This document shows positions 453-33,814 of a DNA stretch of 62,239 nt, one piece after another. The DNA is from a virus. The notes under the pieces are model-generated. The model saw only the letters and a program-made list of their open reading frames with translations, was not told the origin of the DNA and made no database searches. The DNA lies in IMG/VR virus record IMGVR_UViG_3300030202_000729, positions 1-62,239 of that record. One strand, written 5' to 3'. Every line of letters starts with the position of its first letter. Positions within the stretch are counted from its first letter, which is position 1. A program made the translations under genes and the position numbers.

Positions 453-3400
453 TTATTTTTCCAAGAACTTTATCTTCTCCTCCGGAGTCAAGGTCGACAT
501 AATACCATCAACGACTGGGAGCACTCGCTTGATCTTGTTTACAATCTTCCTGTCACCTTTCTCAGCAGTACCGGTACGTCTTTGGTAGAAGATATCTTCT
601 TCGTCCCCAACTCCTACTACGTATCCTAGTTCAGCAGCTCCTTGGTCAATAAGCCCAGTCCACTTTCTCAGCAGGTTAGCTGTAGCTGTAGGCGAGTCAA
701 TGATTCTCATCGCTTCTTTTGGATTAAGGAACTGTAGCATCTCTGTATTCAATCGCTTAGCTTGATACGCAAAGAACCTAAGAGCATAGCTGTCGTCATC
801 GTCATCACTCATCATACCGGCCAAAGCTCTACCGATTGCATACGTAGCTAGTATTACAGCAGTCTCAAAGAATGCACGGCGTATGTTCTGCTGGTCTGTC
901 TCTGAGTAATCGCTTATTGCAAACCTGCCCTGAGTAAACATGTTCTTCAGGTAATCAAGTGCTGACAAGTACATACCCCTAGTTACTGAACCCGCTTCTT
1001 GATCCACGTGGTATCCATCCCCATGACCAAATCTTTTACGGAGTTGTGGCTGCAAGTAGTTACGGAACAAAGTCAACACCTTACCTAGGGCTGATCTCTG
1101 GAAGTGTGACTTATCACGTCTACCTTTTATTTGGTTAGTTCTTTTCTGTACAGAGTTAAGCTTAGATACAAATTTAGCTTTGTCAAAGTTAGCAACACGT
1201 GGGTCTACCACAAGGAATCCTTTCTCGTCCATTACTAGAAGATCCCACAGATCAGCGGGCTTACCTTCTTTGTTGTTGATTACCTTACCATTCTTATCCT
1301 TCAGCTTACCCTCCATAGCTTTCATCAAAGCAATCATTCTTACACCAGAGGTCTGATGCTCTACTGCATGCTGCAGTACGAAGAATGAATCGGTAGACAT
1401 AGACTGCTTCATTTTACCACCGGTAATATTTCTACCTGCTCCGTCTGTCATTTCCACAAGTGCATCAAACATTTGCATAGCCTGTCCAAGCTTAGTTGTT
1501 GGGGCCATCTTACCCAGGTCTGCCATTGCTCCTCCTGAAGCTGCGTACTCTGCTATAGCTGATCTGTAGTTAGCGCGAGTAAAGAACTGTCCTGCCCATG
1601 CTTCTTCCCAAGTCATAAGGTTATCAAGAATTGCTTGGTTACCTGCTTGGAGTGTGTTAAACGATAGCGTGTTGAGTGCAGTCAATACAGACACTGATGA
1701 TGCTATCTTGTTTGCTTCACCAAGTCCTTTTATGTATTGCGGTATATCATACATACCATAGAAGTTGGCATCAACAAATGACTGCAGGTGCTTGAAGGTA
1801 TTAGAGTCTATACCCTTACCCTTTCTGTATACCTGAGCATCCCCTGGGGATAGCTTATTAAGAATCTTAGACCCCGTTGCTGGATCAGTTTCCAACACCT
1901 CTCTACGTGCATGTATGTCAAGCATAGTATTTACTAACCCCTGCATTTCAGCTTTAGCTTCAAACATGTTTGTCATGTGGTGGAACTGCATCAAGCTGGC
2001 TGCTATATCACGACTTACATTCTTAGCATCAACTCTGTTGGTGTACAAGATTGGTACACCTTTTTGTACTACCCCATCTACCTCTTGGAATACACCGTAC
2101 TCTATATCCGTAGCCTGTCTAGTCAAACTGTCTACCACTTGATCCTTAACGCCAGCAATAACTCCTTGCTCTTGTACCCTATCTGCACTATCCTTTCTAA
2201 TAGCAGGCATCTGATACGAGAACTTATCCCATGCATTGGTGTACAGATTAGACTTAGTACCCCTAGCCTGGTCAGCGTGGTATCTATTTACTATTGAATC
2301 GTAGTAAGCTTTCTTTGCAGGATCTGCTTGTATTGCTTCCCACTTTTTACTCTTGTATTCATTACTAGGCTTAGCAAGTGCACCTGAATAGGTCTGGTTA
2401 CTCTTGTTCCATCTAGCTTCATTGATCAACTCACCAAGTTCTTGCTTCAGTACTGAGGCTCTGTCCTGATCGAATGCTGACTCTGACCCCTCTAGCTCTG
2501 CTATCTTAGCTTTAAGCTCCTCCTGTCTTTTTATATTTTCATTGTAAAGACTATCAGCATTTTCTACGGGCTGAGTATTCTCTGCATACCAAGCTGCTCT
2601 ATCTCTATAGTACTGTCTTGCTGCAAGAGAACCTTTTCCTGTTTCATCCATAGACCACTGCTTGTATGCTTCACTATTCCTAGCTACAAACTTACCATTG
2701 TCATCTTTTGGCCACCCGTTGTTCTCCTTAAAACTATTCTCAGCATTGGTACGTGCAGTATAGAACTTATTCACGTCATACTCCTGTACCATGAATAACA
2801 ATTTCTGACCTCTAATATTGTTCTCCGTTAAGAAGGGTGCATTAAACTTGGCAACGTTGATACCTCCACCGGCAGACTCTCTAAATGCATCGTATACTTT
2901 TTGGAAATCAAAAATAGTTTTCCTAGTACCTTCATTTGCTTTAGTTACTTGATCAGTATAAGCAAGAGCAAACAACTGTAGGTTTTGTTCAGATGAGTAA
3001 ACGAAAGGATCCATGTAGAATGAGTACCCAGACTTATCTACATGCGCCTGAGTCATCTCTCTTATCAGCTGCTTCCTACCAAGCTTCTTATTGCTTAGCT
3101 GTTCGATTTTAAGATCAAGAAGTGCCTGTAGTCTTTGAGCATCATTAAGTTCTCCTCTACCGTGCTTGACCTGTATCAAGCTGTACTCAGGATCTCTCTT
3201 GTCAATACCACCTATGTCCTTCGTACGCTTAGTTGCAGCAATAACATTGTCAAGCTCTGCATTTACTTCCTCACTGCCGTAGTTAACAAGGGAGTCTGCT
3301 GCAAGTGGTATAGCTATCTTAAGATATTCATTGTCTAGCTCTTGAGCATCTATCAATGCGTCTTGTAGATCTGCAAGGATATCTTTCTTACGCTGCTCTG

Positions 3401-6400
3401 TACCTTCTTCCCCAACCACCTCACGTAGCAATACTTGTGTTTGTCTTACAAGACTACCACCACCATCTACTCCGTCAATAATTCTGCGTACAGCATCAAC
3501 TTGTTGCAGTACTCTTAGAGCTTCCTTCTTACCAACTGGTGCTTCTCTCTGAGATAGATTTCTCAGATCGTTCATCATAGCCTTGGCTCTGTCCACATTG
3601 AGTACGACATACTCTTGGATCTTCATGAATGCATCAATGTCATTCTTGTTCTCCTTCAGACGCTTAATGTTTTTCTTCAGCTCCTTAAGTCTACGTATCT
3701 GCTCGTTGTCTCTTGTAGCTTCAGGTATCATCTCAAGCTGACGTATCTCTGCATTGACGCTAATGGTAGCAGTCTTGTACAGGTTGTCAACTTCGTTCTG
3801 CATATCCCTAGATCGTTGGACCTTTGGATTGAATATACCAGACAACTGCAATCCACGTAGCTCTCCAGCAAACATCTTCTCAGCAAGAACTGAAGCTGCA
3901 TCAGGTTGTACCCCGAACAGCTTACCTATAGCTCTCATGATTCTGTTGATCAGTCTACGGAATGCACTAGGCTTGTTCTTTTCAATCTTAGCTCCTTCAA
4001 TACCTATAGCTGTTACAAGTATCTCCTTGCCCATCTCGAACTCACTCAGGTTGTCACCTGCATACGCATCTTCTACCTGCCTGACTAGATCTGGACGAAG
4101 CTTTCTCATCTGTGCTATGTATCCTTCTACCTGTGACTTAGGTAGCATGTCTACTATGATGTGCCCAAACTCGTGGTAAGCCGTATCGTCTGTCATCTGT
4201 GATGGATCAAACGTAATAACCTCCCCATCAATCTGACCTTTCACCCCTTTTTCCAGGGAGCCTTCTTCTACGATTACATCAATACCTGCATCTGCAAACG
4301 CAGCTTTCAGTTTAGAAATCTTAGCCTTAGGATCTGCATCACGGCTTAAGCTTGCATCAATCTCTCTACTCTTAGTTGCGTTGTTTTGTACGGGCTGTAT
4401 ACTTTCAGGAGCGGCGCTCTTGTTAGGGTACAGTATACTACGGTCGTTGCCTGCCTCGTTTAACATTCCTTCACGTCCCCTTGTTTCAGTTCTGTGGTAG
4501 GTTACTATGTTCTCACCTCCTGCTATTGTATTGGGAGTCTCTACTCTTTGGTATACGTAAGAGTTTCCAAACCCATCGGTACCTACTATATTGAATGGTT
4601 TTCTTTTCAGTATATCTTTAGTAAGCCTAAACTGTTCTAGCACTGGAGATGGGACACCTCGTACTGTAGTAACCACATTGTCTGCTACTGGGAACATATG
4701 CTTTTTACCAAGCTTCATGTGTCCATAGTCCTGCAGGAATCTAGCCTTAAGATCATTCAGTGCTGATGCGGTAGTCTCTACCTTAACCATCTCTTGTGCT
4801 AAGTATTCTCCTGCACCTACTTCTTTCATTACAGAGTTAGGCAGCATCCCAAACATAGAAGTGGGGGACGTTGCAAATCCTGTAGTAGATATTGAGTTGG
4901 TGATAAGGTCTTTGGCAAACTGTCTTATCTCGTTAGTGGTTTGTGCATCATACCCGAAAGACTCTGGTCTATTCAGCATACGCTCCCACTCTCTCTGCAT
5001 CTTGTTTTGCTCAGCCAGTGTTCTACCCTGAGCATTGTTAAACTCTAGGCTGAAGAACTTGTTTTCAGCATTGTACTGAGTCTCCTTAGGAGTAAGCTGC
5101 TTAACAATACTAAGGTTAGCTATCAATGGCAGCTGTCTCATATTACTCAGACCTGCTATGATGTTTTGATCCTTAGACAAGTGCACTATGCTTAGAGTAT
5201 CCTCGTTCAGGTAAGCAGACTCGCTGAGAGGAGACCCCTGCTTAGTAAGCAGGTGATGAGATATTACCCTATTCAAAGCTTTATGCTGCTCTATAGATAA
5301 GAATCCGTTGCCAGTCAGCTCTTTTACAAAGTTTTTAAATCCAGTAACTGACATCTGTGTGCCAATCATACCTGCTCTATTGGCAACTTCCATTGCTGTT
5401 TCCATAGCCGCATGATATGCAGCTTGGTATCTGTACAGATCTCCTGTCAGTACTCCGTCTACAAAAGATGCTCCTCCATAAGAATCAAGCTGTCCTTCTC
5501 TGATAGCCTCTATCTTATCGAAGTATGCCTGGTGTGCAGCAACACTGCCTGCACCATCTATGTTGTCCACAGACACTGCTGAGTATGTAGTCTGCAATGC
5601 ATTCGCTCCTTTGTACAGAGCTACTAACGAATCCTCTATTTCTCTTGTAGGGGTTTCTTCTGTAATATCTAGATTGGCTGTTGTATTCTTGTCTTTATTA
5701 GTTCCAAAGAATCCTGCCTGCTTAGGATTGTTTACATCCTTTCTTTGCATAGCTTCAGTAACCTTCCTTACATGTGGGTTAGTGAGGAACTTGATAGCTT
5801 GCTGTGGTGTAGCACCTATGCTTAGCAAGTATACTGTGAGCGGTGCTGTCTTAGAGTTATCATTGGCTGCGTTCTGCAGTGGATCTTTCACAGAGTCAAC
5901 AGCTGCAGATAGGTATTGCTTAAGGTAGTGGTCAGTAGGTCTGATGATACCGAATACATCTGGGAATGCTGAGTTCTGTTTTATAGCATTCAATTGTTTA
6001 CCATCAACAGTTACAGTCACAGGGCCTGTGATCTCTTGTCCTGTTGACGTCACTATGTTACGTCCAGCTATAGAGTTAGCGTATATGCCACGGAGTGACA
6101 TAGACAACATGTTCTCGTATGCAGCTGTGATATGCGTCATAGGGTTAAACAAGTCAACATCACCACGCTGTTCTTTACTCATACCTATAGCTTCTAGTCC
6201 TGCCTCAATATCTCGGATACCTTCTGGGTCTAGAACTTCCTGTGCGTGAATAGCATCTACAGCAACCGCCTCCATCACATCTAGTATGATGTTGTTTACT
6301 GCATCTGCTGGGTATGTTGAATCAAGTATCTGTGCCGGGTTAGCTTTGAGAGCATTGTAGTCTGGCATGATTCTACCAGTACCGTCCTTCTTTTGTGACG

Positions 6401-9400
6401 GCATCATCAAGAACATCTTGTCAATGTCAAAGTCAGAACCCATAGCTGTGGTGATCTGCGCTGGTACACGGACAGCAGACTGAGCTCCAGACTTGTTGAT
6501 TCTCTTAATCTTAAGAGTTACCATGAATGACTTACTCGCATTTGGTATACGGTATGCAATCATTCTTCTGTTCTCCTCTGCTACATCTGTAGTATCCAAG
6601 TCTACACCTACAGGCAGGTCAAGTCCAAAGGCTTTCATCTGTGCCTCTCCTATCTCTATCTCTGCATGTGTAACAAAGCCATCGTCATTTACATCCAAGA
6701 ACTTAAGCTCTCCTGTTTCTTTATGAGCTCCAAACTCTGCAAACTGAACCATCTCTAGTCCATTTACTTTCTGCTTGTACACGCCTTTGCGGAATGCACT
6801 AAACAATAGACTGTCAAATGTATTCTGGAATCCAGGGTAGCTAAGTGGCAAGCCAAACATTACGTTGCCTGCTTCATCCAACTCTAGCCTCATGCTTTCA
6901 ATAACATTCTCAGGAAGACCTCTTTCTTTGGCCATGTCCAAGAGTCTGTTACGCATAGTAACCATGAACTTGCTGTCTACGATCTGATCTTTGTTCTGCT
7001 CAAAGAACTCACTGGTAAATCCTAATGCGTTTTTAAGTTCGCTAAGATCATTCTGAACCTTACGCTCAATAGCATTGTGGTATATATCCAGCATTGTAGA
7101 GCCCTTGACTTTCGTAGCCTTACCGGTTCCTACGTTAAGAGTATAGCTGTGTGCACGATCAACGTTAGCTATTTGATTCTTCTTAGGCTGCTTACCAAGG
7201 TTTGTCTTGGTCTCTTCTTTGATACCTATGTCCTGTGGGAATCTTAGACCTCTAGTATCTAGGGTTACTACGTGCAGTTCCCCAAACTGGTTGACTCCGT
7301 TGTTGTCAATTGCGTATGGACGTATCTGCCCAAGCTTGGTAGCTGACTCTGTATTGATAACATTAATAGGAGCTTGCCCTGCGTATTGGTCTCTTGCTTC
7401 CATACGAGCAAGCATGTCCTCAAGAATAGGACGTCCTTCTGCAAGGGCCCTATCAAGAACCATGTAGGAGTTCTTATCCGATATAGGTATGTTTATATCA
7501 GAGAGAGTTCCTCCCATGTTATTCATCGTGTCATACTGAGGCTTCATAGGAACAAGTGGACTACGTGTTACATCCCAGGGTTGTCCTGCTTTGTATTCTT
7601 CGTATACCTCTTGATCAACAGGCATCCACTCTCCTTGCCCTTGCCTAATCTTCCTGTAGTGGTCTATGCTAATAAACGCCTGCGCATCTGTTCCGTTGGT
7701 CTCCTTATATTTTTTTACTGCATCCTCTGCAGCTTTCTTAGCATTCTCTGGAGTAGCACCACGACTTATCAATCCCTTCTCAATAGCAGCACCATACTTC
7801 TCTGCAAGTCCATTAAGATCGTCAGGTGTAATGTCTTTTACTGTTGCAGTAGTGAAGGTAGGATCAGCTCCGTATTGTCCTTGAGGAGTTACATTAAGCA
7901 TGCCACCTGGTGTGGTAACAAGGTTGGCTCTTTTGATAAATGTTCTTCCGTCCTGAGTCCAGTTGGTTGTACCATTGCGCAGCATCTGGTTAGACATTTT
8001 CTTACCTAGTACATCAGTCAAAATAAAGTCATCCAAAAAGTTGTCTAGGTTACCATAGTTAGAGAATATATCTGCACCGAGCTTTGACTTAAGAAGTCCT
8101 TCTAGATTTGGATTAGATTCTTTTATCTCTCCCTTCATTGTAGCTAGAGCATCACTCACATCTTTACCCAGCCTCTCTAGTATCTCAGCATCTATAGGAT
8201 CTTTTGTTTCCAAGTGATCGTAGATGGCTTGAGCTGTCTTCTCGTCGTACTTTAACCCAGGAAGGTTCATCCTTTTGAACCAATCCTTAGTATGGTAGCC
8301 CTCTATAAGTGGGTCGTTATTCTTCTTTGCTTTGTCTATGTACAGCTGTGCTTTGTATGCTCTGTGCATGTCAAGCATGATCTCGTTTTTGATAAGAGAT
8401 GTAGCCGTATCACCACTAAGTCCAAGCGCTTGAAGACCTTGTCTATTTCTGGTAGATACCTTAGGGAAGGTATGAAAGCTCATACGCTTTCTATCTGCCT
8501 GTGTGGTCAGTGCTACGTTAGATGTATTCTGTCCTGCATTGTGAAACTGTGATAGAACAACAACCATTACGTCTTCCTGGCTTAGCTCATCGTATGCTTT
8601 GTTCTGTTCTCCTTTTAGTATTCCAAGGTCTTTAAACTTGAACTTAGCTTTGAACTTAGGAGAGGTGAGAAGCTTTCCACTCATACCTACAACTTGTCCT
8701 TTGACGCTGACACCGTCGGTGCCCAACATATCTACCGCTTGAGTTCCATCCTTTATTCTGTTCTGCAGATTGTTTATCTCTGTACGAGCATTGATTGGGT
8801 AGATAAGCTTACCACCCATGTTGAATGAGGTAGCAGGAGCTGATTCAAAAGGTTCTACTAGGTCCCTTATGACTCTATTGATAGTTGTGCCCTCACTTTC
8901 GAAGATGTTTTCTTTCACCCCTTCACTTGACAACCTAGTAGCCATAGCTGTAAGCTGTGTTCTAGGAGCGCTAATAAGTCTAGATATATCCACCTTACCA
9001 CTAAGCACCTGAGACCTTACACGTTCTCTCGCTTCTTCTCTAGTAGGAGCTATACTCATACCCATGTCCATCAGGAGATCGGCGAGTGTATTAGCATTCT
9101 CTGCAGTGTTTGTACTGTCCTTCTTAAGCTTGGATATGCCTTCCTTTATAGTAGCTGCTTTTTCTTTACTGACACTTAGTACGTCATTGCCTAATGTATC
9201 TTGGGTAACCGTGTACAAGTTTTGATTTGCCTCAGACTTCCACTTCTTTTTAAAGAAAGATGTAGTGCTCTGCGAGTTGGCGTCAAAAGTTCTAGCGGAT
9301 CTTTCAGCTGTTTCAGTACTAAGAGCAGGGTCTATTATTACAAACTCAGTCAGTCCTAAGCTTCCAAAGTTGCTGAACAACAATGATTTTTGCTGATCAT

Positions 9401-12400
9401 TAAGAGAGCTAACGAACTGTGCTACTCCTGCAACTGGATGTGAAGAAGGTAGCTGTCTAAGCTTTTCTACCATCTCAACGCTGTTCTTAGAGTTGTAGGT
9501 AGCACCAAGCACTGCAGCATATATATCTGCTACAGGTACAAACGTATCATATCCAAACACTCCTGTGTTCTTAACGTCTGTGGATACAGGAATCCTACCA
9601 AGCAATCTCTTTACTTTCTCAGTCAGCTTATCGTACGGGTTCTCTTCTAGTCTACCCTTGTTGTATATCCGTTGGTATACTACACCTGCATCTTCTACAA
9701 GTATGTTGGTACCGCTCTTCTCTCGTACTGTATACCCAAACTCTTCAAGCCTGTCCAATACATCAGCTCGCATACCACGGTCTTGCTCCATGCCAGTAGC
9801 GTCGTATGTGCTAAACCACGTATCGTATACCTCTTGTAGATATGCTTTTCTTTGTGGGTCTTCTGTTTTAGCCGCTTCGTCTCTGAACCACTCAGCAATC
9901 ATAGATCCTTCACCTGCTGTGCCTTCTGTAGATTCAGGGTTTCCAAACAACATACCAGCATCTAACGGTTGGTTTTGTTCTACAAGTGCCTTAATTGTAT
10001 TAAGCGTCTTAGCTACTCCTACATCTCTAGCCTCTTCAAATACTCTAGCATTACCAACTCTGTCTAGTGCAGAGAGCTTTGTTTCTACTTGTGGTGCGGG
10101 CTCTGTTTCAATAGGATCACCTTCTACTATAGTAGGCAGTACTTCTATATCTGCTTCCTCTGTTGTCTCAGCTGGTACTGCGTCTTCTTCTATTGGTGCT
10201 GCAGGAGTCTCTTCGTTTACTGCTTCTCTGGTAGCTTCTTCAAGCTTACCATCAGTAGCATTGTACTCCATGGATATACCAGGGTCGTTAAAAAACTGAC
10301 CGTAGGTGCTGTCCATAGCTTTAAAGTCTACGGCCAAAGGACCTACTAGGCCATCGTTGTCCATGATTTTTGGATCAGACAAGTAGTCCAAGTAGCTATC
10401 GTATATAGTGCTGTTGTCTAGAGGTGATACAAACTGTCCCTCTTGGTTAACACTTTGAACACTTATTTGGAACTTGGATTCTCCCAGTCTTTGCTCAATC
10501 AGACTTCTTACACCAGCTGTGTCTAGACCCTGTAAGAACGTAACATCGTACAAGTCCTCGGCTTCTTCAGATACAGCTTCAAAGTTACCGTTGTCGTCAA
10601 ACGAACCTATCGTGTAGTTTATGTTCTCATCTGCAGACTTTGCAAATTGATCAGAGTATACACGATATACCATTTTATTCTCTGCCGTTACAAGCATATA
10701 GTTGTTGTCATTGGTGTCTCTACCAACTTGTAACTTACCTCCTAGTCCTAACAGATCTTTAAGTCTGGTTATAGAGTCAGCATCGTTATTTTGCAAGAGG
10801 CTTCTAGCCTGTTGCATTGCCTTTTTACTATTTTTTAGATCTCTAGTACTCGTAGTCAGTGCTCGATATTTACCGTTTGGTTGTTTTACCAACATGTAAA
10901 CCATACCAGGCTCGAAGGTTTCACCATTTATATTAGAGGCTAGCTCTTCTACTGGAAATGGATCTATCTTTCCGTCCTCTGTAATATTACCGGTATCCAT
11001 GTAGAACTCTCCCCTCTTGGTACCTCTAAGAATACCTATGATAGGCTCCTGATCAGCTTTTTCAAAAGCCTCATTTACAGATACAAACTTCTGATTACCT
11101 TGCTCATCAACCATGTTGTTTGGGTTGCCAAACTTTCTACCGGTAATCTCAGCTGTAACTTTTTCTCCTTTCTGCAGCTTTGCTAAAATCCTATTATAAT
11201 CAGGAGATCTAACATACTCGTCATTTCTTACATGTCCTATGTAGTCGTTACCAACCTTAATGGCAATGGTAGTGCCATTCTTCAGAAGTTCAAATGTAGC
11301 TGTCTTTCCTTCTAGACCAGGTCGGAATAAAGGTTCTCTGTTAAGTAAAACTCCATTTTCTTCGAACAACTTCTCGTCAAACTCTATTCTACCCTTAGTA
11401 GGATTGTTCTGGTCGTTTACTACAATTGTATACTTACCAGATCCTTTGGTTCTATCCATAGTAAAGTCACCAGCATTAATAACAACGCCTGCTTTCTCTT
11501 GAGAGTTGTCATTGCCCTGTTCTGCTTGAGCCGCAGATACTTCTGCGTCTGCAGCACGTTCGTCTGCATCCTTTTGAGCTTGGGCTGCTTCTGTTGCTTC
11601 TGCAGTCATCTCTGCTGCTTCTGCATCAGCTGCTCTTTCTTGTGACTGTGTCAAGTCCGTTGCTTCCCCTCTAACCGGTTCTAGTCTTGCTGTTGTTCTT
11701 CCTTCTTCCTTGGCTTTTTTAACCTCATCCTGCATAATTGATTTACGTACAGGGTCTTCTTCCTCTTTGAGAAGTTCTTCTATTGCAGCTGGAGTCATTG
11801 CCCCAACCTCTTGCCTCATCTTAGCCTCAGCTTCGTGTCGTTCACGCTTGATCTGTGCTATCTCTTCTTGCATAGCAGGAGACGCATTGGTTGTATCTAC
11901 GTCAGCAAGATCAGATTCTTTTACAGTCTCATTGATATCCTCTCTAATAGCTTGGTCTACCTTGTCTTGCTTTGCTTGTTCCGCTCTAGCTTTTTGTCTT
12001 TGCAGATACGCCTCCCTCATTTCAGGAACTGCACTAAGATTATTAAGAGCTCCTACTGCTTTCTTTCTGTCGCTAGCGAGCAGGATCAAGTCATCCATCT
12101 TCTCTTTAAGCTCTTGAGCAGCAACACCCCCTTCATTAACTGTTACTCTCTGTAAAGCATCATTTAGCTTTTCTCTAGTCTGTTCATCTAGTATAGGCGA
12201 CTCTACTGGCAATGATCTGTCTTCTACGTCTAATGTGCCCTCTACAGTTTGTATAGCCTCACGCACACTAGCTGCAGTAATACCAGCTTCAGGATCAGCT
12301 TTATTTATTTCTGCAACAAGATTATCTATTCTACCATCTATGTTCTTAAGACTGGATGTGTTGTTAAACAACATTCTTTTGTAAAAAGTCTCATCAGCAA

Positions 12401-14336
12401 TAATCTCTGCTTCTTCTCTCTTTTGCTCTTTGCTCATGAACAGTCTTGCTGCTCCCTCTGTGCGTTCAGTAGCTGGGAACTTAGACTCTATATTATCGTG
12501 GAGTGTCTGAAGGTCTTCTGCTTTTTTCTTCAGGGCATCAACCAAGGCATTCTTATCTTGTCCCATGAGAGATTCTCCCTCACCAAGATTGTCTTGGATA
12601 AACTGCTCCTCAGTCTTTTCCTTCTCCATCTCCAAGCGCTCAAGGAATACATCCATAGTACCCATCTCTGCATGCATAAGAGCTTCCGCTCTGAGTGCTT
12701 TAAACTGCGCATCAGCATAAGCCTTATGCTTACCTGGTCTGCCGGTAAATCTACCCTTCTCGTCTCGTGCTCTAGTTTGTAGAGCGGCATTCATATCTGC
12801 TACGTGACCTGCTATTTCATTAGCATGCTGTCCTCTCTCAATCATTTTCTGCATGAGAGGACTGTTGTTGATCATCTCAAGAGCTTTGTTTACCTGCTGG
12901 TCTTCTGCGGTTTGTCCTTTGTTTATAGCAGTTTGTACACTGCCCAGACCTCCAGTAAGCATACCGACCATAACACCTACTAGTGTATTGTCAAAACCTT
13001 CCTTGGTGTTGTACGTATCTCCGTAGCCTTTAGCAATTGCTTTAAACCAATCATTAGCATACTCTGGATCTGTAGCTCTGAGAGTTGCAGCTTCTGATAT
13101 TGCAAACTGTGTAGCTTCTTGGAATCCCTCAGATACACCACCTTCAATAGAAGGAGCTATGTATTTCTTAGCTATGTTAAACCATCTAGGATCTTTGGCT
13201 AGTTTGTCTACAGCTTTACCTGCAGCTTTGTCAAGTCCTACTCTAGCAAGAGGTCCTTTACTTCTTGGTATAAACTTAGGGAATAGATGTTGTCCAAATG
13301 TTATAAGGTTTGTACCTGTTAACACTGCCAAGTTCATACCAAACGTTGCATTACCTGCACTTGCAGCCTCACTTCTTAGCTGTGTTTGAATTTCTTTTGG
13401 TACTTGGTTAGGGCTCATACCTCTATCAGCAGCATACTTTGCAATCATAGTATCTGCTACACTGTTCATAGTCTCACGAGCTTCTACAGAAGACTCTGCC
13501 CAAGACATCATCATACCAATGTCCGCTGCTTTAGCGGCTGCCTTAAGGCCACTACTAATCTTTGCACCTGTTTTTACAGCATTTGCTACATCAGCTCCTG
13601 TATCTACTGCTCTAGCTGCAGCCAATGCTGCTTTTGAGTATCTACCTAGACCTGCTGCTTTTCCCGCTAGCTTAAGTCCTTTGCCTGCCCCACCTATAAG
13701 TCCTGTACCACCGGTCAGATATATAGTAGCAATAGAGCCCAGGGAGTATCCTAGACCATTAGCTGCCTTATCTGCCCAGAAGTTTGCAAATCCTAGGGCT
13801 GCAAGACCTTGAGCATTTTGCTCTTGCTGTGTGTAGTAGTTAGGCATAACCTCTTGCATGTAGTTATTGATTTTGTCAATCTTTCTACCTACAGAGTTAT
13901 CAAAGAATTTAGTACCATCCCAATTAACAGCAGCTTCTCCTATACCCACGACCATGCCGAGTGTGTTTTCTGCAACTGCACCTGCAGTGGTTACAAGAGC
14001 TTTTGTAAGACCCCTGCCCCACTTCTCCCCTGTGCTTTGTCTCATAGCTCTTTCCTGGTCAAGGTCTAAGTAGGGAGAAAGTGTAGCCCCATACTTGCCA
14101 TAAGATGCTAGATCGTCTCGAAGATTTACATTAAACTGCATCTTCCTGTTGACACCAAGACTTTTCTTGTTGGTGATATAAGCACTGCCAGTTAACGGGT
14201 TTACCATAGGATCACCTGATGGTGATTTTATAACTGGAGAACCTGTTAACGGATTTACATCTATTGAAGCAGATGTATTAGGTGTGTCTTCTACTGAAGT
14301 ACCAGTAGGTGCATTAGTTGTATTTTCTTCGGCCAT
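453..14336 (-). CDS. Giant virion-type protein with crAss-like RNA polymerase motif and HExxH metallopeptidase motif
   Basis: 4627 residues. Seen in the sequence: an N-terminal duplicated NPLTGS segment (about 28-52); a Gly/Ala-rich part with several hydrophobic stretches (about 120-480); a long charged, Glu/Lys-rich probable coiled-coil part (about 480-1000); a perfect EF-hand loop DVNDDGFVTHAE (2548-2559); the motif RVPAQITTAMGSDFDIDK with Asp2635, Asp2637 and Asp2639; AYHEFGH with His3388, Glu3389 and His3392; and a C-terminal hydrophobic helix beside a run of Asp (about 4440). Known: the DFDID loop after a RxPxQ-type strand is the metal-binding catalytic loop of the virion RNA polymerase of crAss-like phages (phi14:2 gp66 type), which is ejected to transcribe early genes. 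Inference: this is the packaged polymerase, fused to a possible protease and membrane-active segments. It is the last large gene of the late block, after the cargo genes, as expected in Crassvirales. The polymerase call is firm at motif level; catalysis by the HExxH part is a guess. Confidence 0.85.
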   Translation of the reverse strand: MAEENTTNAPTGTSVEDTPNTSASIDVNPLTGSPVIKSPSGDPMVNPLTGSAYITNKKSLGVNRKMQFNVNLRDDLASYGKYGATLSPYLDLDQERAMRQSTGEKWGRGLTKALVTTAGAVAENTLGMVVGIGEAAVNWDGTKFFDNSVGRKIDKINNYMQEVMPNYYTQQEQNAQGLAALGFANFWADKAANGLGYSLGSIATIYLTGGTGLIGGAGKGLKLAGKAAGLGRYSKAALAAARAVDTGADVANAVKTGAKISSGLKAAAKAADIGMMMSWAESSVEARETMNSVADTMIAKYAADRGMSPNQVPKEIQTQLRSEAASAGNATFGMNLAVLTGTNLITFGQHLFPKFIPRSKGPLARVGLDKAAGKAVDKLAKDPRWFNIAKKYIAPSIEGGVSEGFQEATQFAISEAATLRATDPEYANDWFKAIAKGYGDTYNTKEGFDNTLVGVMVGMLTGGLGSVQTAINKGQTAEDQQVNKALEMINNSPLMQKMIERGQHANEIAGHVADMNAALQTRARDEKGRFTGRPGKHKAYADAQFKALRAEALMHAEMGTMDVFLERLEMEKEKTEEQFIQDNLGEGESLMGQDKNALVDALKKKAEDLQTLHDNIESKFPATERTEGAARLFMSKEQKREEAEIIADETFYKRMLFNNTSSLKNIDGRIDNLVAEINKADPEAGITAASVREAIQTVEGTLDVEDRSLPVESPILDEQTREKLNDALQRVTVNEGGVAAQELKEKMDDLILLASDRKKAVGALNNLSAVPEMREAYLQRQKARAEQAKQDKVDQAIREDINETVKESDLADVDTTNASPAMQEEIAQIKRERHEAEAKMRQEVGAMTPAAIEELLKEEEDPVRKSIMQDEVKKAKEEGRTTARLEPVRGEATDLTQSQERAADAEAAEMTAEATEAAQAQKDADERAADAEVSAAQAEQGNDNSQEKAGVVINAGDFTMDRTKGSGKYTIVVNDQNNPTKGRIEFDEKLFEENGVLLNREPLFRPGLEGKTATFELLKNGTTIAIKVGNDYIGHVRNDEYVRSPDYNRILAKLQKGEKVTAEITGRKFGNPNNMVDEQGNQKFVSVNEAFEKADQEPIIGILRGTKRGEFYMDTGNITEDGKIDPFPVEELASNINGETFEPGMVYMLVKQPNGKYRALTTSTRDLKNSKKAMQQARSLLQNNDADSITRLKDLLGLGGKLQVGRDTNDNNYMLVTAENKMVYRVYSDQFAKSADENINYTIGSFDDNGNFEAVSEEAEDLYDVTFLQGLDTAGVRSLIEQRLGESKFQISVQSVNQEGQFVSPLDNSTIYDSYLDYLSDPKIMDNDGLVGPLAVDFKAMDSTYGQFFNDPGISMEYNATDGKLEEATREAVNEETPAAPIEEDAVPAETTEEADIEVLPTIVEGDPIETEPAPQVETKLSALDRVGNARVFEEARDVGVAKTLNTIKALVEQNQPLDAGMLFGNPESTEGTAGEGSMIAEWFRDEAAKTEDPQRKAYLQEVYDTWFSTYDATGMEQDRGMRADVLDRLEEFGYTVREKSGTNILVEDAGVVYQRIYNKGRLEENPYDKLTEKVKRLLGRIPVSTDVKNTGVFGYDTFVPVADIYAAVLGATYNSKNSVEMVEKLRQLPSSHPVAGVAQFVSSLNDQQKSLLFSNFGSLGLTEFVIIDPALSTETAERSARTFDANSQSTTSFFKKKWKSEANQNLYTVTQDTLGNDVLSVSKEKAATIKEGISKLKKDSTNTAENANTLADLLMDMGMSIAPTREEARERVRSQVLSGKVDISRLISAPRTQLTAMATRLSSEGVKENIFESEGTTINRVIRDLVEPFESAPATSFNMGGKLIYPINARTEINNLQNRIKDGTQAVDMLGTDGVSVKGQVVGMSGKLLTSPKFKAKFKFKDLGILKGEQNKAYDELSQEDVMVVVLSQFHNAGQNTSNVALTTQADRKRMSFHTFPKVSTRNRQGLQALGLSGDTATSLIKNEIMLDMHRAYKAQLYIDKAKKNNDPLIEGYHTKDWFKRMNLPGLKYDEKTAQAIYDHLETKDPIDAEILERLGKDVSDALATMKGEIKESNPNLEGLLKSKLGADIFSNYGNLDNFLDDFILTDVLGKKMSNQMLRNGTTNWTQDGRTFIKRANLVTTPGGMLNVTPQGQYGADPTFTTATVKDITPDDLNGLAEKYGAAIEKGLISRGATPENAKKAAEDAVKKYKETNGTDAQAFISIDHYRKIRQGQGEWMPVDQEVYEEYKAGQPWDVTRSPLVPMKPQYDTMNNMGGTLSDINIPISDKNSYMVLDRALAEGRPILEDMLARMEARDQYAGQAPINVINTESATKLGQIRPYAIDNNGVNQFGELHVVTLDTRGLRFPQDIGIKEETKTNLGKQPKKNQIANVDRAHSYTLNVGTGKATKVKGSTMLDIYHNAIERKVQNDLSELKNALGFTSEFFEQNKDQIVDSKFMVTMRNRLLDMAKERGLPENVIESMRLELDEAGNVMFGLPLSYPGFQNTFDSLLFSAFRKGVYKQKVNGLEMVQFAEFGAHKETGELKFLDVNDDGFVTHAEIEIGEAQMKAFGLDLPVGVDLDTTDVAEENRRMIAYRIPNASKSFMVTLKIKRINKSGAQSAVRVPAQITTAMGSDFDIDKMFLMMPSQKKDGTGRIMPDYNALKANPAQILDSTYPADAVNNIILDVMEAVAVDAIHAQEVLDPEGIRDIEAGLEAIGMSKEQRGDVDLFNPMTHITAAYENMLSMSLRGIYANSIAGRNIVTSTGQEITGPVTVTVDGKQLNAIKQNSAFPDVFGIIRPTDHYLKQYLSAAVDSVKDPLQNAANDNSKTAPLTVYLLSIGATPQQAIKFLTNPHVRKVTEAMQRKDVNNPKQAGFFGTNKDKNTTANLDITEETPTREIEDSLVALYKGANALQTTYSAVSVDNIDGAGSVAAHQAYFDKIEAIREGQLDSYGGASFVDGVLTGDLYRYQAAYHAAMETAMEVANRAGMIGTQMSVTGFKNFVKELTGNGFLSIEQHKALNRVISHHLLTKQGSPLSESAYLNEDTLSIVHLSKDQNIIAGLSNMRQLPLIANLSIVKQLTPKETQYNAENKFFSLEFNNAQGRTLAEQNKMQREWERMLNRPESFGYDAQTTNEIRQFAKDLITNSISTTGFATSPTSMFGMLPNSVMKEVGAGEYLAQEMVKVETTASALNDLKARFLQDYGHMKLGKKHMFPVADNVVTTVRGVPSPVLEQFRLTKDILKRKPFNIVGTDGFGNSYVYQRVETPNTIAGGENIVTYHRTETRGREGMLNEAGNDRSILYPNKSAAPESIQPVQNNATKSREIDASLSRDADPKAKISKLKAAFADAGIDVIVEEGSLEKGVKGQIDGEVITFDPSQMTDDTAYHEFGHIIVDMLPKSQVEGYIAQMRKLRPDLVRQVEDAYAGDNLSEFEMGKEILVTAIGIEGAKIEKNKPSAFRRLINRIMRAIGKLFGVQPDAASVLAEKMFAGELRGLQLSGIFNPKVQRSRDMQNEVDNLYKTATISVNAEIRQLEMIPEATRDNEQIRRLKELKKNIKRLKENKNDIDAFMKIQEYVVLNVDRAKAMMNDLRNLSQREAPVGKKEALRVLQQVDAVRRIIDGVDGGGSLVRQTQVLLREVVGEEGTEQRKKDILADLQDALIDAQELDNEYLKIAIPLAADSLVNYGSEEVNAELDNVIAATKRTKDIGGIDKRDPEYSLIQVKHGRGELNDAQRLQALLDLKIEQLSNKKLGRKQLIREMTQAHVDKSGYSFYMDPFVYSSEQNLQLFALAYTDQVTKANEGTRKTIFDFQKVYDAFRESAGGGINVAKFNAPFLTENNIRGQKLLFMVQEYDVNKFYTARTNAENSFKENNGWPKDDNGKFVARNSEAYKQWSMDETGKGSLAARQYYRDRAAWYAENTQPVENADSLYNENIKRQEELKAKIAELEGSESAFDQDRASVLKQELGELINEARWNKSNQTYSGALAKPSNEYKSKKWEAIQADPAKKAYYDSIVNRYHADQARGTKSNLYTNAWDKFSYQMPAIRKDSADRVQEQGVIAGVKDQVVDSLTRQATDIEYGVFQEVDGVVQKGVPILYTNRVDAKNVSRDIAASLMQFHHMTNMFEAKAEMQGLVNTMLDIHARREVLETDPATGSKILNKLSPGDAQVYRKGKGIDSNTFKHLQSFVDANFYGMYDIPQYIKGLGEANKIASSVSVLTALNTLSFNTLQAGNQAILDNLMTWEEAWAGQFFTRANYRSAIAEYAASGGAMADLGKMAPTTKLGQAMQMFDALVEMTDGAGRNITGGKMKQSMSTDSFFVLQHAVEHQTSGVRMIALMKAMEGKLKDKNGKVINNKEGKPADLWDLLVMDEKGFLVVDPRVANFDKAKFVSKLNSVQKRTNQIKGRRDKSHFQRSALGKVLTLFRNYLQPQLRKRFGHGDGYHVDQEAGSVTRGMYLSALDYLKNMFTQGRFAISDYSETDQQNIRRAFFETAVILATYAIGRALAGMMSDDDDDSYALRFFAYQAKRLNTEMLQFLNPKEAMRIIDSPTATANLLRKWTGLIDQGAAELGYVVGVGDEEDIFYQRRTGTAEKGDRKIVNKIKRVLPVVDGIMSTLTPEEKIKFLEK

Positions 14337-29790: not shown

Positions 29791-30156
29791 TTAAAATGAG
29801 CTCATTATAATTTCATCTACTACTTCTTGAACGTCTTTTTTTGTTGCTTCAAGCTGCATCATAATATTAGCTTGAAAACGTTCTACTTCTTCTCCTTCAT
29901 TAAATACAATAATAGTTGGAACTACAACTATCTTGTGTTCTATCTGCATGCTGGGGTCAGAAGCTATATCAATCCTACGAGCACTGCAATCACTTATCTT
30001 ATCGATCCATGCGACGCCGTTAGCAGCATTAAAGCTGGCATTGAATTCTACAACGCAGATTCCTGAATTATCAATTTCAGGGTCTTCTACCGGTACGGAT
30101 ATATATACTGCTGTAGACAGTAGAACCGTAGATAATATTGCTAGTGTTATTTTCAT
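29791..30156 (-). CDS. Exported thioredoxin-fold protein lacking the CXXC active site
   Basis: 121 residues. An N-terminal hydrophobic segment (MKITLAILSTVLLSTAVYIS) is a signal peptide or anchor. The domain reads ICVVEFNASFNAANGV, then ARRIDIA, then VVVPTIIVFNEGEEVERFQA: the beta-alpha-beta layout and the cis-Pro strand (VVPTIIVF) of thioredoxins. Where thioredoxins have WCxxC this one has FNAAN, so no redox cysteines remain there. It is linked by TAATG to the coiled-coil membrane gene upstream and is the fourth gene of the envelope module. It probably acts outside the inner membrane as a binding or scaffold domain, not as an oxidoreductase. Confidence 0.7.
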   Translation of the reverse strand: MKITLAILSTVLLSTAVYISVPVEDPEIDNSGICVVEFNASFNAANGVAWIDKISDCSARRIDIASDPSMQIEHKIVVVPTIIVFNEGEEVERFQANIMMQLEATKKDVQEVVDEIIMSSF

Positions 30157-30440
30157 TATTTCAATTTATCGATCTTTTCTTCTATGCGGTCAAGATCTTC
30201 TTTTAGTTCTTTAACATCTTCTTGCGTAGTCATGATTGTTTGACGGACCAGCTGATCCTTCATGTCAAACTCCATGCGTGTGATCTCTGGTAGGGGAGGT
30301 TCAGGTAGTTCTTTAGCTAGAGCTATATCAGCTTGTAGCGTAAAGTACATACCAATTAAAGCAGCCAACCCCGCTGCTGCCATCCCTATTGTTTTAAGAT
30401 CTAATGTTACTTTAGTATCTTCTCCTATTTGCTTTGCCAT
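30156..30440 (-). CDS. Single-span membrane protein with coiled-coil tail
   Basis: 94 residues. After a polar N-terminus (GEDTKVTLDLKTIG), a membrane helix spans about 18-36 (GMAAAGLAALIGMYFTL). There follows a proline-rich hinge (LPEPPLPEI) and a heptad-like helix to the C-terminus (EDVKELKEDLDRIEEKIDKL). This layout recurs in phages beside lysis or envelope genes. A cytoplasmic N-terminus with a periplasmic coiled coil would fit an inner-membrane spanin-like subunit or a tether; no partner spanin lipoprotein is visible. It sits one base after the barrel gene. Confidence 0.6.
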   Translation of the reverse strand: MAKQIGEDTKVTLDLKTIGMAAAGLAALIGMYFTLQADIALAKELPEPPLPEITRMEFDMKDQLVRQTIMTTQEDVKELKEDLDRIEEKIDKLK

Positions 30441-30441
30441 C

Positions 30442-31488
30442 TTATAGTAGTATATAATTTATCCCCACAGAGAAGTCGTGCCACTCTCTATTCCAATATC
30501 TGTTATATTTTCCCTCTAGGAACACGCCGAGGCTTTTTGTAATCTTTGTACCAAACACCAATCCTGCTCCAAAGTCAACCCATTGATCGCTGTTGACAAA
30601 GTTGTGGTATGAGTATTCCCCATCTGTATTCAAATGGTAAGGCATCATGTTACCCCAACTATGTACCCAGAAGTCTTTGCTGTAGTGGTAGTAGTCAAAG
30701 CCTATAACAACTGAGTGTACCCATTGGTCTTGAAGCTCTGATCTCTTAGACGCTACGTAATCATCTAGAACTTGAGGTATTATTACCTGTTCCCAAATTA
30801 CAGCATCGTTAGCTACAAGCTCACCCTGAGGGTTAAAGAACTCTTCTGTATTTACATCAATGCTGTACCCTTCTTGCAACGCAAGTGAAGTGTAGTGTAT
30901 TTGATCATTGTCAAGTACCCACTCCTGCAATGGATCGTATCCATAAGGCTCAGAGATTCTTTGCATTACACCTACATTGACTGAGAACTTCTTACCAATC
31001 TTAGCTCGTAGTCTTTGTGATCCCTCGAAGTAACTAATGTCAGCAAAGCCGTCCTGCAGGTATTCTGCTTTTACAACCCACCAATCATCTATGTATCGTA
31101 TGAAGTAATCTTGATCTAGGAAGTTGCGTCCTTGTTGTCTTCTCCAATCTGCTTCTGCAAGGAACTCAAGTCCGTTGAATTTTCCAACTGTTGCTGCGTC
31201 CCCGTACGTTTTCTCAGTGCCATCATAGAATACATTAGCTCTGTTCTCATAGCCAAAACGCGCAATCTTTCGGACCCCAAGCGTAAGAGAGTAGTCAAAG
31301 GGTGTTTCAATAACCCCGGTTGTAAGTGCTCCGGTAGTGACAGAATATACGTCATCATCAGATACCGAGTTGCCGCCATTAGCCGCTGCGTAGAACGTCG
31401 CTCTTCTAAGCACTTTCTTGTAGAAGTCTCCTTGTGCATAGTTTGTAAGTGGGAGTAAAGCCAGTAATATGATTAGTAGGTACCTCAT
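30442..31488 (-). CDS. Phage-encoded outer-membrane beta-barrel protein
   Basis: 348 residues. A clear signal peptide (MRYLLIILLALLPLTNYAQG) is followed by many amphipathic strands alternating aromatic and polar residues (for example FSVNVGVMQRI, WVDFGAGLVFGT, LGVFLEGKYNRYW). The C-terminal strand WHDFSVGINYILL ends in hydrophobic residues, as outer-membrane barrels do. It lacks the DPQF...NPAYAG pattern of PorP/SprF proteins. It overlaps the T9SS cargo gene by four bases (ATGA), so the two are co-translated. Possible roles are receptor masking, superinfection exclusion or partnership with the cargo. Placement in the outer membrane is well supported; the role is not. Confidence 0.75.
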   Translation of the reverse strand: MRYLLIILLALLPLTNYAQGDFYKKVLRRATFYAAANGGNSVSDDDVYSVTTGALTTGVIETPFDYSLTLGVRKIARFGYENRANVFYDGTEKTYGDAATVGKFNGLEFLAEADWRRQQGRNFLDQDYFIRYIDDWWVVKAEYLQDGFADISYFEGSQRLRAKIGKKFSVNVGVMQRISEPYGYDPLQEWVLDNDQIHYTSLALQEGYSIDVNTEEFFNPQGELVANDAVIWEQVIIPQVLDDYVASKRSELQDQWVHSVVIGFDYYHYSKDFWVHSWGNMMPYHLNTDGEYSYHNFVNSDQWVDFGAGLVFGTKITKSLGVFLEGKYNRYWNREWHDFSVGINYILL

Positions 31489-33542
31489 TGCTTTACGATT
31501 GTTTGTTTAAATACTCTGTTCTTGTAATTGATTACTACAGTGTAAACACCTGCAGCTGGTAGCTCTATTTGGGTATCAGCAGTCATCAGTACTTTCTGTC
31601 CTGTAGAACTATACACTGTAGTAAGTGTACCTTCTGGGGCTTGTACATTAATGTAGTCTCTCGTAGGATTAGGATATACTCTTACCTGATCCATATGTGT
31701 AGGTACATTTGTTATTCCGTCGCCGCAGTAGCCGTACATCTCTACACACACCTCATCCCAACCTACTTCACAGCAGTAAGGATCTACAGAGATTACCCAT
31801 GCATAGCACTGGTCATTCAACCAATATGGTTCTCCTGGTCCTGTAATGCATCCTGCATCATAGAAACAATCAGTAGATGTATTGGCCTCTTCGTTGTAGT
31901 TGTATGCGTCTAGGTCCATACATCCTTCTACTATAGCTACACAGCTGTTGTTATCTACGTTAGCTTCAGGCTCGTAGTTTAATGCATCTTGATTAGTGCA
32001 CCCAAAGACTGCTAGTGTTTGACAGCTGCCATCATCGTAGTCAGCTTCAAAGCCTTGCGTATAGTATTCTAGGTAGCCTGCTTGATCACACCCTGGGTTG
32101 TAGTAGCATGTTCCGTCTTCGCTATTTACATCAGGGTTAAAGTTAAATGCTAGGCTATCTGTACACCCGTATGAGAATGGGATACAGCTAGTTCCGCAGT
32201 AGGGAGTAAAGCTGTATACATTCCACTCAGGGTTCTTGAATGGTTGAAGCGCTCCCTGACCATTGTCAAAAAACGGGTTGAGTCCTTCTACCATTAGTGT
32301 GTCTTCAAGCTCGTTTGTTACGAGTATAGAGTTGTGGAGTGTTTGAAACTCCGTCTCTTGGGGAGGCTGTTGGGGGCTGCCTATTTCAAAGTAGTATACG
32401 TCAACCTTTTCGTCAGAGTCAAGAACTAGGTCCCACGACTGAGAGAACTGTCCAGGACCCATGGTAAAGATCCACTGTAGATCACCTTGTTTTACGCCTA
32501 TATGTGAGTTACCCCACCCATCTCCAGCTGCGTCTCCAATTCTTATAGTTGTAAGGCACGGGCTGTTTAGGTCTGAGATTGTAGCAATTGAATCATAGTT
32601 GAATGCTGTTGAATCCATGCAGCCCCATGTATGAAGCACTTCACATGTGTCTTGTGCTGTAGCCAGGGGATTGTAGTCTACGTAGTCATCATTCATACAT
32701 CCGACTATAACGCTATCAGCAGCACAAGGCTCTACGAATACAGGACCAGAGTAGTGGACCATACCATCATTTTCTGAGTAAGCTAAGTCTTCTAGCTCCC
32801 AAACAATTTCTTCATCGCAGGCAGTAATAACTACACCGCCATCCTGCCCACCACTTGAAGAGCCATTAAGACCATCTCCGTATGTATCTGTAAGTATAAG
32901 CTCAAATCCTAGAGCTACACAGAAGTCATAGGTATATGTAGCGAGTTGATCACCAAAGTTAAATCCGCCTGGGAGTACTTGTTCGTAGAATTGACCAACA
33001 GCTAAATCAACAAGAGTGAATCCTGTTTCGTTAGGCCAGTTGTCTAGCGTCAACTCCATGGATACAAATGCTTGACCTTCTGGACACTCACTAACATTGC
33101 AGGTTCCGTTGTCTACCGTAGCCCATGGATTGTAGTTGTTGGATTCATCATTTGTACATCCAGGCACGGGAAGAGCACAAGGCTCTAACATAAAAGGAAC
33201 TGTTATCTGTGCAGTGTTGAAGTCAAATACTGACAAGTCAAGACCACAGTCATTGTTTAGTTTAAACCAACCTTCTCCAAACTGACAGCAAATACCGTCA
33301 CCGAACTGATCGTTCACTACAAGATTGTACTCACCTGATGGTAAGGGTATAAGCTGTTCTGTATAAGACGAGTCAGCATATGGACCTCCAGATGCAAACG
33401 CACTGTCAGATCCAACCATGTATATCTCCCAAGTACTTTCACTTCCGTATGAGTCGGTCTGAAACTCTAGGTTAACCCAGCTTGGTTGTGCTGCTATGAT
33501 ATTAGACAGCCCTATAAATAGTATTGTAAGTAATTGTTTCAT
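31485..33542 (-). CDS. Secreted Cys-rich repeat protein with T9SS type A sorting domain
   Basis: 685 residues from the chosen ATG (33540-33542), which overlaps the previous stop as ATGA and gives the best signal peptide (MKQLLTILFIGLSNIIAAQ); three in-frame ATGs lie up to six codons upstream. Seen: repeats of the type GCTNxxxxNYNPxATVDNGTC near residues 128-150, 281-300, 307-330, 459-480, 513-535 and 541-560; a Cys-rich CC...WDEVC...C block near 575-606; and a C-terminal domain from about 618 (VRVYPNPTRDYINV ... GVYTVVINYKNRVFKQTIVK). The last matches the Por secretion (type A) tail that sends Bacteroidota proteins through the type IX system to the cell surface. Inference: the infected cell exports and displays this protein. 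It is very probably acquired from a flavobacterial host. Confidence 0.85.
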   Translation of the reverse strand: MKQLLTILFIGLSNIIAAQPSWVNLEFQTDSYGSESTWEIYMVGSDSAFASGGPYADSSYTEQLIPLPSGEYNLVVNDQFGDGICCQFGEGWFKLNNDCGLDLSVFDFNTAQITVPFMLEPCALPVPGCTNDESNNYNPWATVDNGTCNVSECPEGQAFVSMELTLDNWPNETGFTLVDLAVGQFYEQVLPGGFNFGDQLATYTYDFCVALGFELILTDTYGDGLNGSSSGGQDGGVVITACDEEIVWELEDLAYSENDGMVHYSGPVFVEPCAADSVIVGCMNDDYVDYNPLATAQDTCEVLHTWGCMDSTAFNYDSIATISDLNSPCLTTIRIGDAAGDGWGNSHIGVKQGDLQWIFTMGPGQFSQSWDLVLDSDEKVDVYYFEIGSPQQPPQETEFQTLHNSILVTNELEDTLMVEGLNPFFDNGQGALQPFKNPEWNVYSFTPYCGTSCIPFSYGCTDSLAFNFNPDVNSEDGTCYYNPGCDQAGYLEYYTQGFEADYDDGSCQTLAVFGCTNQDALNYEPEANVDNNSCVAIVEGCMDLDAYNYNEEANTSTDCFYDAGCITGPGEPYWLNDQCYAWVISVDPYCCEVGWDEVCVEMYGYCGDGITNVPTHMDQVRVYPNPTRDYINVQAPEGTLTTVYSSTGQKVLMTADTQIELPAAGVYTVVINYKNRVFKQTIVKQ

Positions 33543-33814
33543 TTGCATCTGCATCTCCACTTTCTAAGTGCTTTGTTAATACGTGAGTTAGGATCTCTTT
33601 TTCCCTTAGATCCTGTTCGTCTTTTCTTCATACCGCACATACGAGCACAGAATGATTTACGTCTAGACTTTTTCTTGCCTTTGGGGTTCTTCTCAGTAAC
33701 CGCCATAGATAACTTACTGCCTGGATTGGCTTTACGATAAGAAGCAATGCCTTTGCGGTTTAGTCCGCCAGACTTGCTTTTACCCTCTTTCCGTGTCCAT
33801 GCTGCCGTTGCCAT
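33539..33814 (-). CDS. Small basic phage protein (91 aa)
   Basis: 91 residues, with a pattern known from many phages: AWTRKEGKSKSGGLNRKG, ASYRKANPGSKL, then RRKSFCARMCGMKKR and DPNSRINKALRKWRC. It is strongly basic with four Cys near the middle and end (possible metal site). Function unknown. Its ATG overlaps the stop of the 75-residue gene upstream, and its stop overlaps the start of the T9SS cargo gene. One of a set of at least five small basic proteins in this late block. Confidence 0.7.
   Translation of the reverse strand: MATAAWTRKEGKSKSGGLNRKGIASYRKANPGSKLSMAVTEKNPKGKKKSRRKSFCARMCGMKKRRTGSKGKRDPNSRINKALRKWRCRCK

What the first reader, a model, noticed from the sequence alone, without database searches (positions are those of the whole stretch)
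30442..33542. Phage operon with a T9SS cargo protein and an outer-membrane barrel
A protein with signal peptide, host-type repeats and a type A T9SS tail is translationally coupled (ATGA) to a signal-peptide-bearing barrel protein. A phage using the host type IX system to decorate the infected cell is, to my knowledge, not established. It could block adsorption of other phages, change aggregation, or protect the cell.
Basis: partly seen in the sequence, partly recalled or inferred. Interest (0 to 1): 0.85.

Follow-up and report, generated by a model that had tools for sequence, protein, structure and literature searches.

The report
Phage cassette decorating host cell surface
Several hundred marine virus fragments, from at least two unrelated families of phages of Bacteroidota bacteria, share a small gene set whose lead protein carries the address tag of the host's own type IX secretion machine and is nearly always encoded next to a phage-made outer-membrane barrel, so these viruses probably repaint the surface of the cells they infect.

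Summary
A 685-aa protein (31485-33542, minus) has a signal peptide, five Cys repeats and a type A T9SS tail (TIGR04183, 28.3 bits, cut-off 23; the model matches the NucA tail solved inside the T9SS translocon). It overlaps by ATGA a predicted outer-membrane beta-barrel (30442-31488). The window is a crAss-like phage.

All four lie together in 80 of 80 well-flanked barrel loci; at least 577 IMG/VR contigs hold the barrel. The cassette jumps between phages whose terminases are only 21-29% identical while barrels stay 58-79% identical; cargo bodies are shuffled freely. The tail, but not the body, tracks the barrel, even where the two lie at opposite ends of the cassette. A divergent barrel subfamily never has a cargo.

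Best explanation: a mobile surface-display cassette whose cargo leaves by the host T9SS and is held by its own barrel, an analogue of bacterial SprB-SprF pairs but not a member of that family. The purpose (probably keeping off other phages) is inferred. Phage T9SS cargo itself was reported in 2020; the dedicated mobile partner set appears new.

The parts
31485..33542 (-). Cargo: 685 aa, signal peptide with +1 Gln, beta-rich body with five GCxD-type Cys repeats, C-terminal type A T9SS sorting domain (residues 622-685)
   Evidence: TIGR04183 over cut-off; PDB tails 8glk/8glj/7pzj/5hfs by profile; fold match 8glk_D TM 0.74; repeats and 30 Cys; invariant Q19
31485..31679 (-). T9SS type A sorting domain (CTD) with YPNPT motif
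31485..31488 (-). ATGA stop/start overlap that couples cargo and barrel
   Evidence: the same -4 overlap in many other loci
30442..31488 (-). Barrel: 348 aa, signal peptide with +1 Gln, 12 predicted strands, roughly 75-residue helical insert between strands 7 and 8 predicted to face outward
   Evidence: AlphaFold2 pLDDT 68.7, pTM 0.61; top 50 PDB hits all outer-membrane barrels; invariant Q19
30156..30440 (-). Coil: 94 aa, one transmembrane segment (about residues 17-35) then a highly conserved coiled-coil-like tail; very likely inner-membrane
   Evidence: present with the barrel in 80 of 80 well-flanked loci; alignment; hydrophobicity
29791..30156 (-). Exported thioredoxin-fold protein without the CxxC motif, 121 aa
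   Evidence: weak thioredoxin matches; alignment shows the VVVPTI cis-Pro segment kept and CxxC absent; in the cassette in 80 of 80 loci

Best explanation
It is a mobile surface-display cassette of phages of T9SS-bearing Bacteroidota. Late in infection the phage makes (1) a Cys-rich secreted cargo with a type A T9SS tail, (2) its own outer-membrane beta-barrel, (3) an inner-membrane coiled-coil protein and (4) an exported redox-dead thioredoxin-like protein. Cargo and barrel cross the inner membrane by Sec; the cargo crosses the outer membrane through the host T9SS. The barrel recognises the tail and keeps the cargo at the cell surface or hands it on, as PorP/SprF barrels do for type B cargo in Flavobacterium. 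The coil and thioredoxin-like proteins probably link the barrel to the inner envelope or help fold the Cys-rich cargo. The decorated surface most likely limits adsorption or entry of competing phages. Shown: tail, barrel fold class, linkage, horizontal exchange, tail-barrel covariation. Inferred: actual export, physical tail-barrel binding, late timing (from the neighbouring holin and structural genes), and the purpose.
For: Tail identity. Barrel. Export: Q19 invariant in both families, the Bacteroidetes Q-rule (PMC5837995). One CTD gene per contig in 27 of 29 contigs, two in tandem in the others, next to or inside the barrel cassette; four-gene linkage 80 of 80, 72 of 77 cargo-seeded loci with the exceptions cut by contig ends, confirmed from coil and thioredoxin seeds. 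Mobility: TerL 21-29% identical against barrel 58-79%, coil 61-95%, cargo 40-79%; TerL tree separates the lineages 100/99, the barrel tree breaks the split in every bootstrap, and the cargo tree is random to it. Cultured relatives lack both genes, so they are accessory. CTD tracks barrel: partial Mantel 0.48 (cargo upstream, n=45) and 0.62 (cargo downstream, barrel and CTD at opposite ends, n=15), p=0.0005 each, while in the downstream order body, coil and thioredoxin show no such partial correlation. Barrel subfamily II (38% identical) keeps coil and thioredoxin but has no CTD in 9 of 9 loci. Precedent: type B cargo is bound and anchored by the barrel encoded immediately downstream (PMC9143113, PMC12618676).
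Against: No experiment. In known systems type A tails are all served by host PorV (PMC12618676), so no dedicated barrel should be needed. Covariation could reflect adaptation of both proteins to the same host. The barrel model is only moderately confident (pLDDT 68.7). Subfamily II shows that the barrel has a use without cargo. Hosts are unknown; the phages are uncultured. The superinfection-exclusion purpose has no direct evidence.
Confidence: 0.58

Rival explanations
1. Lysis or envelope-disruption module: barrel (outer membrane), coil (inner membrane plus periplasmic coil) and thioredoxin-like protein form a spanin-like bridge that opens the outer membrane at lysis; the T9SS cargo is a passenger gene that rides along.
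For: Barrel, coil and thioredoxin stay together without cargo in subfamily II. Barrel and coil covary (partial 0.31 and 0.53). A holin gene (phrog_3427) lies in the same neighbourhood in many loci, often directly upstream. The coil protein has an i-spanin-like layout.
Against: Does not explain why barrel I is nearly always with a CTD cargo, or why the CTD tracks the barrel. No spanin family matched apart from weak chance-level hits. Cultured relatives do without it.
Confidence: 0.2
2. Surface adhesin or enzyme for host behaviour rather than exclusion: the cargo makes infected cells stick to particles or to each other, or adds a binding or hydrolytic activity, raising phage yield or spread.
For: Type B cargo in Flavobacterium are known or predicted adhesins (PMC12618676); Cys repeats and beta-rich modular body; bodies are diverse and swapped.
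Against: No enzyme or lectin domain found in 21 cargo proteins beyond the tail, one DUF5872 fusion apart.
Confidence: 0.2
3. Barrel and cargo are unrelated functions kept together by linkage and host adaptation; the cargo uses host PorV like any type A substrate and the barrel is a decoy porin or receptor.
For: Type A substrates use PorV in F. johnsoniae (PMC12618676); the barrel matches neither PorV nor PorP/SprF profiles.
Against: All-or-none link of barrel subfamily to cargo and tail-specific covariation at a distance.
Confidence: 0.25
4. Virion parts (a tail fibre and its adaptor) with chance signal-peptide-like starts.
For: They lie among late structural genes; tail fibres are also swapped between phages (general knowledge).
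Against: Conserved Sec signals with invariant +1 Gln, an outer-membrane barrel fold and a T9SS tail make no sense inside a virion.
Confidence: 0.03

Closest known systems
SprB-SprF / PG1035-PorP: T9SS type B cargo with a cognate PorP/SprF barrel, often encoded next to it (PMC9143113, PMC12618676)
   Same: Cargo gene immediately followed by an outer-membrane barrel gene; the barrel is thought to collect and hold the cargo by its tail; some such operons add a periplasmic partner (PorE-like)
   Different: Phage-borne; tail is type A (TIGR04183), not type B; barrel has no sequence match to the PorP/SprF or PorV families and is predicted with 12 strands rather than 14; partners are a coiled-coil membrane protein and a thioredoxin-like protein
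Cryophage T9SS type A cargo (PMC7468147)
   Same: Phage-encoded type A tails on exported proteins, variable between phage variants; hijack of the host T9SS and superinfection exclusion already proposed there
   Different: That paper describes tailed enzymes and a PA14 protein in one phage; no dedicated barrel or conserved cassette is described in the passages read. The genome was not in the collections for direct comparison
crAss-BACON ORFs with T9SS sorting domains (PMC6949934)
   Same: crAss-like phages with a T9SS tail gene near the head genes
   Different: BACON repeats; no barrel partner noted in the passages read
Phage-encoded outer-membrane barrels (for example the lambda Lom type; from my own knowledge, not tested)
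   Same: A phage gene that places a barrel in the host outer membrane
   Different: Different folds and sizes; not tied to a secretion-system cargo

Membership tests
T9SS type A cargo | C-terminal TIGR04183/PF18962 domain | tested here: met
   TIGR04183 28.3 bits over cut-off 23; 19 of 21 relatives match; Pfam 24.5, just under 27; fold match 8glk_D
T9SS type A cargo | Sec signal peptide | tested here: met
   Hydrophobic N-terminus and invariant +1 Gln; no SignalP run
T9SS type A cargo | Export that depends on SprA/PorV | not testable with these tools
   Needs expression in a flavobacterium
PorP/SprF or PorV shuttle family | Match to the family profile | tested here: not met
   NCBIfam scan of 32 barrels gave no PorP/SprF or PorV model at E<=1
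PorP/SprF or PorV shuttle family | 14-stranded FadL-like barrel | tested here: inconclusive
   12 strands predicted, but residues 44-59 and 78-104 are of low confidence; FadL entries are among the hits but not the best
PorP/SprF or PorV shuttle family | Encoded with, and specific for, a CTD cargo | tested here: inconclusive
   Linkage and CTD-barrel covariation are met; binding itself could not be tested
Crassvirales (the phage) | crAss-type TerL, portal, MCP and ring proteins | tested here: met
   PHROG TerL, portal and MCP; CrAss_Ring_1 at 9e-54; TerL 37-43% identical to the best-matching gut crAss-like phages
Spanin | Inner-membrane coiled-coil partner plus outer-membrane lipoprotein | tested here: inconclusive
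   The coil protein fits the inner partner; no lipoprotein in the window cassette, only a barrel; no spanin profile match beyond chance level
Superinfection-exclusion protein | Blocks a second phage | not testable with these tools
   Needs adsorption and plating assays

The most novel reading that the evidence does not exclude
The barrel is a virus-encoded T9SS shuttle or anchor of a new family, neither PorV nor PorP/SprF, that captures type A tails and takes them out of the host PorV-PorU route, so that the phage controls what the infected cell displays; body and tail are separate modules, with bodies traded across unrelated phages like interchangeable surface coats.
Probability: 0.35. Interest if true: 0.9.

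Novelty: new variant of a known kind. Interest (0 to 1): 0.74.

Why it matters
If right, a widespread group of marine Bacteroidota phages carries a ready-made kit to rebuild the outside of the infected cell through the host's own secretion machine. It would be, to my knowledge, the first virus-encoded partner of a T9SS cargo; it makes phage-phage competition at the cell surface directly testable, and it offers a new tail-barrel pair for dissecting how T9SS shuttles recognise their cargo. The all-or-none difference between barrel subfamilies I and II is a natural experiment.

Tried and rejected
Relatives in cultured phages: none for cargo or barrel in 50,697 phage records. Relatives in cellular genomes: one contig only, a MAG contig labelled as an archaeon that carries the phage cassette, so probably misbinned; this scan finds close relatives only. 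Solved-structure match of the barrel by sequence: none. SH3_5 Pfam hit in the barrel: under its cut-off and mostly in the helical insert, rejected. Cargo body fold search: only diffuse beta-sandwich hits, uninformative. Plasmid search: weak Vibrio matches to the N-terminal domain only. Top BFVD structural match A0A516LKJ4 (22% identity) could not be named. Idea that barrel loci without an adjacent tail contradict the link: mostly resolved as truncated contigs, cargo at the other end of the cassette, or barrel subfamily II; a few coil-seeded loci with short downstream flanks stay undecided. Body-tail covariation was weak to moderate (0.03-0.34), against simple whole-cargo inheritance.

Full report
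Observation. The cargo (31485-33542) ends in a type A T9SS sorting domain that passes the NCBIfam cut-off (28.3 against 23 bits) and falls just under Pfam's (24.5 against 27). A profile of 21 relatives finds solved T9SS tails in the PDB (7pzj, 8glk, 8glj, 5hfs), and the AlphaFold2 tail superposes on the NucA tail solved in the T9SS complex (8glk_D, TM 0.74, rmsd 2.5 A). The stop of the cargo and the start of the barrel share ATGA. The barrel (30442-31488) has a signal peptide and 12 predicted strands with a helical insert of about 75 residues; its 50 best PDB matches are all outer-membrane barrels (porins, autotransporters, FadL). TM-scores are modest, so the fold class is clear but the strand number is not final. 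Strands alternate in hydrophobicity more than shuffled ones (14 of 2000 shuffles as high).

Export signature. Gln 19 is invariant in 32 barrels and in 21 cargo proteins, right after the signal peptide, whose own residues are poorly conserved (mean 0.42 in the barrels). This is the Bacteroidetes Q-rule for signal peptidase I substrates (PMC5837995). It points to a Bacteroidota host and to real Sec export.

The phage. The window is a whole IMG/VR virus record with crAss-like terminase, portal, major capsid and ring proteins.

The cassette. The barrel has at least 577 relatives in IMG/VR, none in cultured phages and one in a cellular genome set, probably a misbinned contig. In 80 of 80 loci with enough flank, the CTD cargo, barrel, a 94-aa single-TM coiled-coil protein (30156-30440) and an exported thioredoxin-fold protein without CxxC (29791-30156) occur together, usually in that order and often with a holin gene upstream (some of the 80 are overlapping loci of the same contig). 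Searches seeded with the cargo, the coil and the thioredoxin-like protein return the same set; nearly all exceptions are cut contigs. In a second arrangement the cargo lies after the thioredoxin gene. Of 29 contigs, 27 have exactly one CTD gene and two have two in tandem.

Mobility. The contigs belong to different phages. Five (the window included) have crAss-type terminase and capsid; others have terminases only 21-29% identical to the window's and no match to that capsid family, although one long contig (G018) has a distant capsid match. The terminase of one of these others (G006) finds Flavobacterium elemo phages and Cellulophaga phages as nearest cultured relatives. Yet barrels are 58-79%, coils 61-95% and cargo proteins 40-79% identical to the window's. 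The terminase tree separates the groups (100/99); in the barrel tree the split fails in all bootstraps; in the cargo tree the label is no better clustered than shuffled. So the cassette moves between unrelated phages and the cargo moves most. Five cultured or complete members of these lineages lack both tail gene and barrel, so the cassette is dispensable for making virions.

Tail and barrel belong together. Across the sampled contigs barrel distances correlate with CTD distances (rho 0.56) but hardly with the cargo body (0.18), and CTD and body do not correlate (0.03). Physical closeness could explain this where the CTD abuts the barrel. In loci with the cargo at the other end, the CTD is the most distant element, yet the partial correlation of barrel and CTD, with body, thioredoxin and coil held constant, is 0.62 (p 0.0005, n=15), while barrel-body, thioredoxin-CTD and coil-CTD vanish. 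A divergent barrel subfamily (38% identical) keeps coil and thioredoxin but has no CTD gene nearby in 9 of 9 loci and none on the four whole contigs searched, one of 65.7 kb. Limits: Mantel tests do not remove all relatedness, the downstream sample is small, the 70-residue tail is short, the repeat-rich body aligns less well, and common adaptation to a host species could also make tail and barrel covary.

Mechanism. In Flavobacterium johnsoniae and Porphyromonas, type B cargo is collected and anchored by a PorP/SprF barrel, often encoded by the next gene, while type A cargo uses PorV (PMC9143113, PMC12618676). The phage set has the same logic with a type A tail and a barrel that matches neither family. 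I therefore propose a phage-owned surface-display kit: Sec export, T9SS passage of the cargo, capture by the phage barrel. The thioredoxin-like protein may help fold the 30-Cys cargo; the coil protein may tie the barrel to the inner envelope. Freely traded bodies and a constant tail-barrel pair suit a competitive surface coat, hence superinfection exclusion as the most likely purpose, but this last step is inference.

Known or new. Phage T9SS cargo has been reported (PMC7468147, with hijack and superinfection exclusion suggested; PMC6949934), and phage genes obeying the Q-rule were noted in P. gingivalis phages (PMC10367356). I found no report of a dedicated barrel or of this mobile four-gene cassette; the literature search covered open PMC papers only.

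Noticed in passing
window 29791-30156: Exported thioredoxin-fold protein that has lost CxxC but keeps the cis-Pro segment and is strongly conserved in the cassette.
   Followed up: partly
L004 7632-10001: The cargo ORF is fused in frame to an upstream DUF5872-like basic domain, so its signal peptide is internal; re-initiation or an alternative start is likely.
   Followed up: no
window 33539-33814: Small basic DUF6321 protein that wanders around the cassette: upstream, downstream or absent in other loci.
   Followed up: partly
G019:C1:12141-14255 and G029:C1:5276-7378: Terminase matches with in-frame TAA stops, perhaps frameshifts, introns or assembly errors.
   Followed up: no
L080, L111, L114 (contigs of 120-156 kb): The cassette also occurs in much larger phages with only remote crAss terminase matches.
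   Followed up: partly
window 453-14336: A 4,627-aa protein with only a partial match to a PHROG of unknown function.
   Followed up: no
L097 (CALBOT010000064.1): A MAG contig labelled as the archaeon Nitrosopelagicus carries the barrel and a CTD gene of this cassette: probably a misbinned virus contig.
   Followed up: no
L115, L116, L117, L119: Two T9SS-tailed genes in tandem before the barrel.
   Followed up: no
L347 6746-7171: Small heat-shock (Hsp20-like, by eye) protein gene next to a cassette with barrel subfamily II.
   Followed up: no
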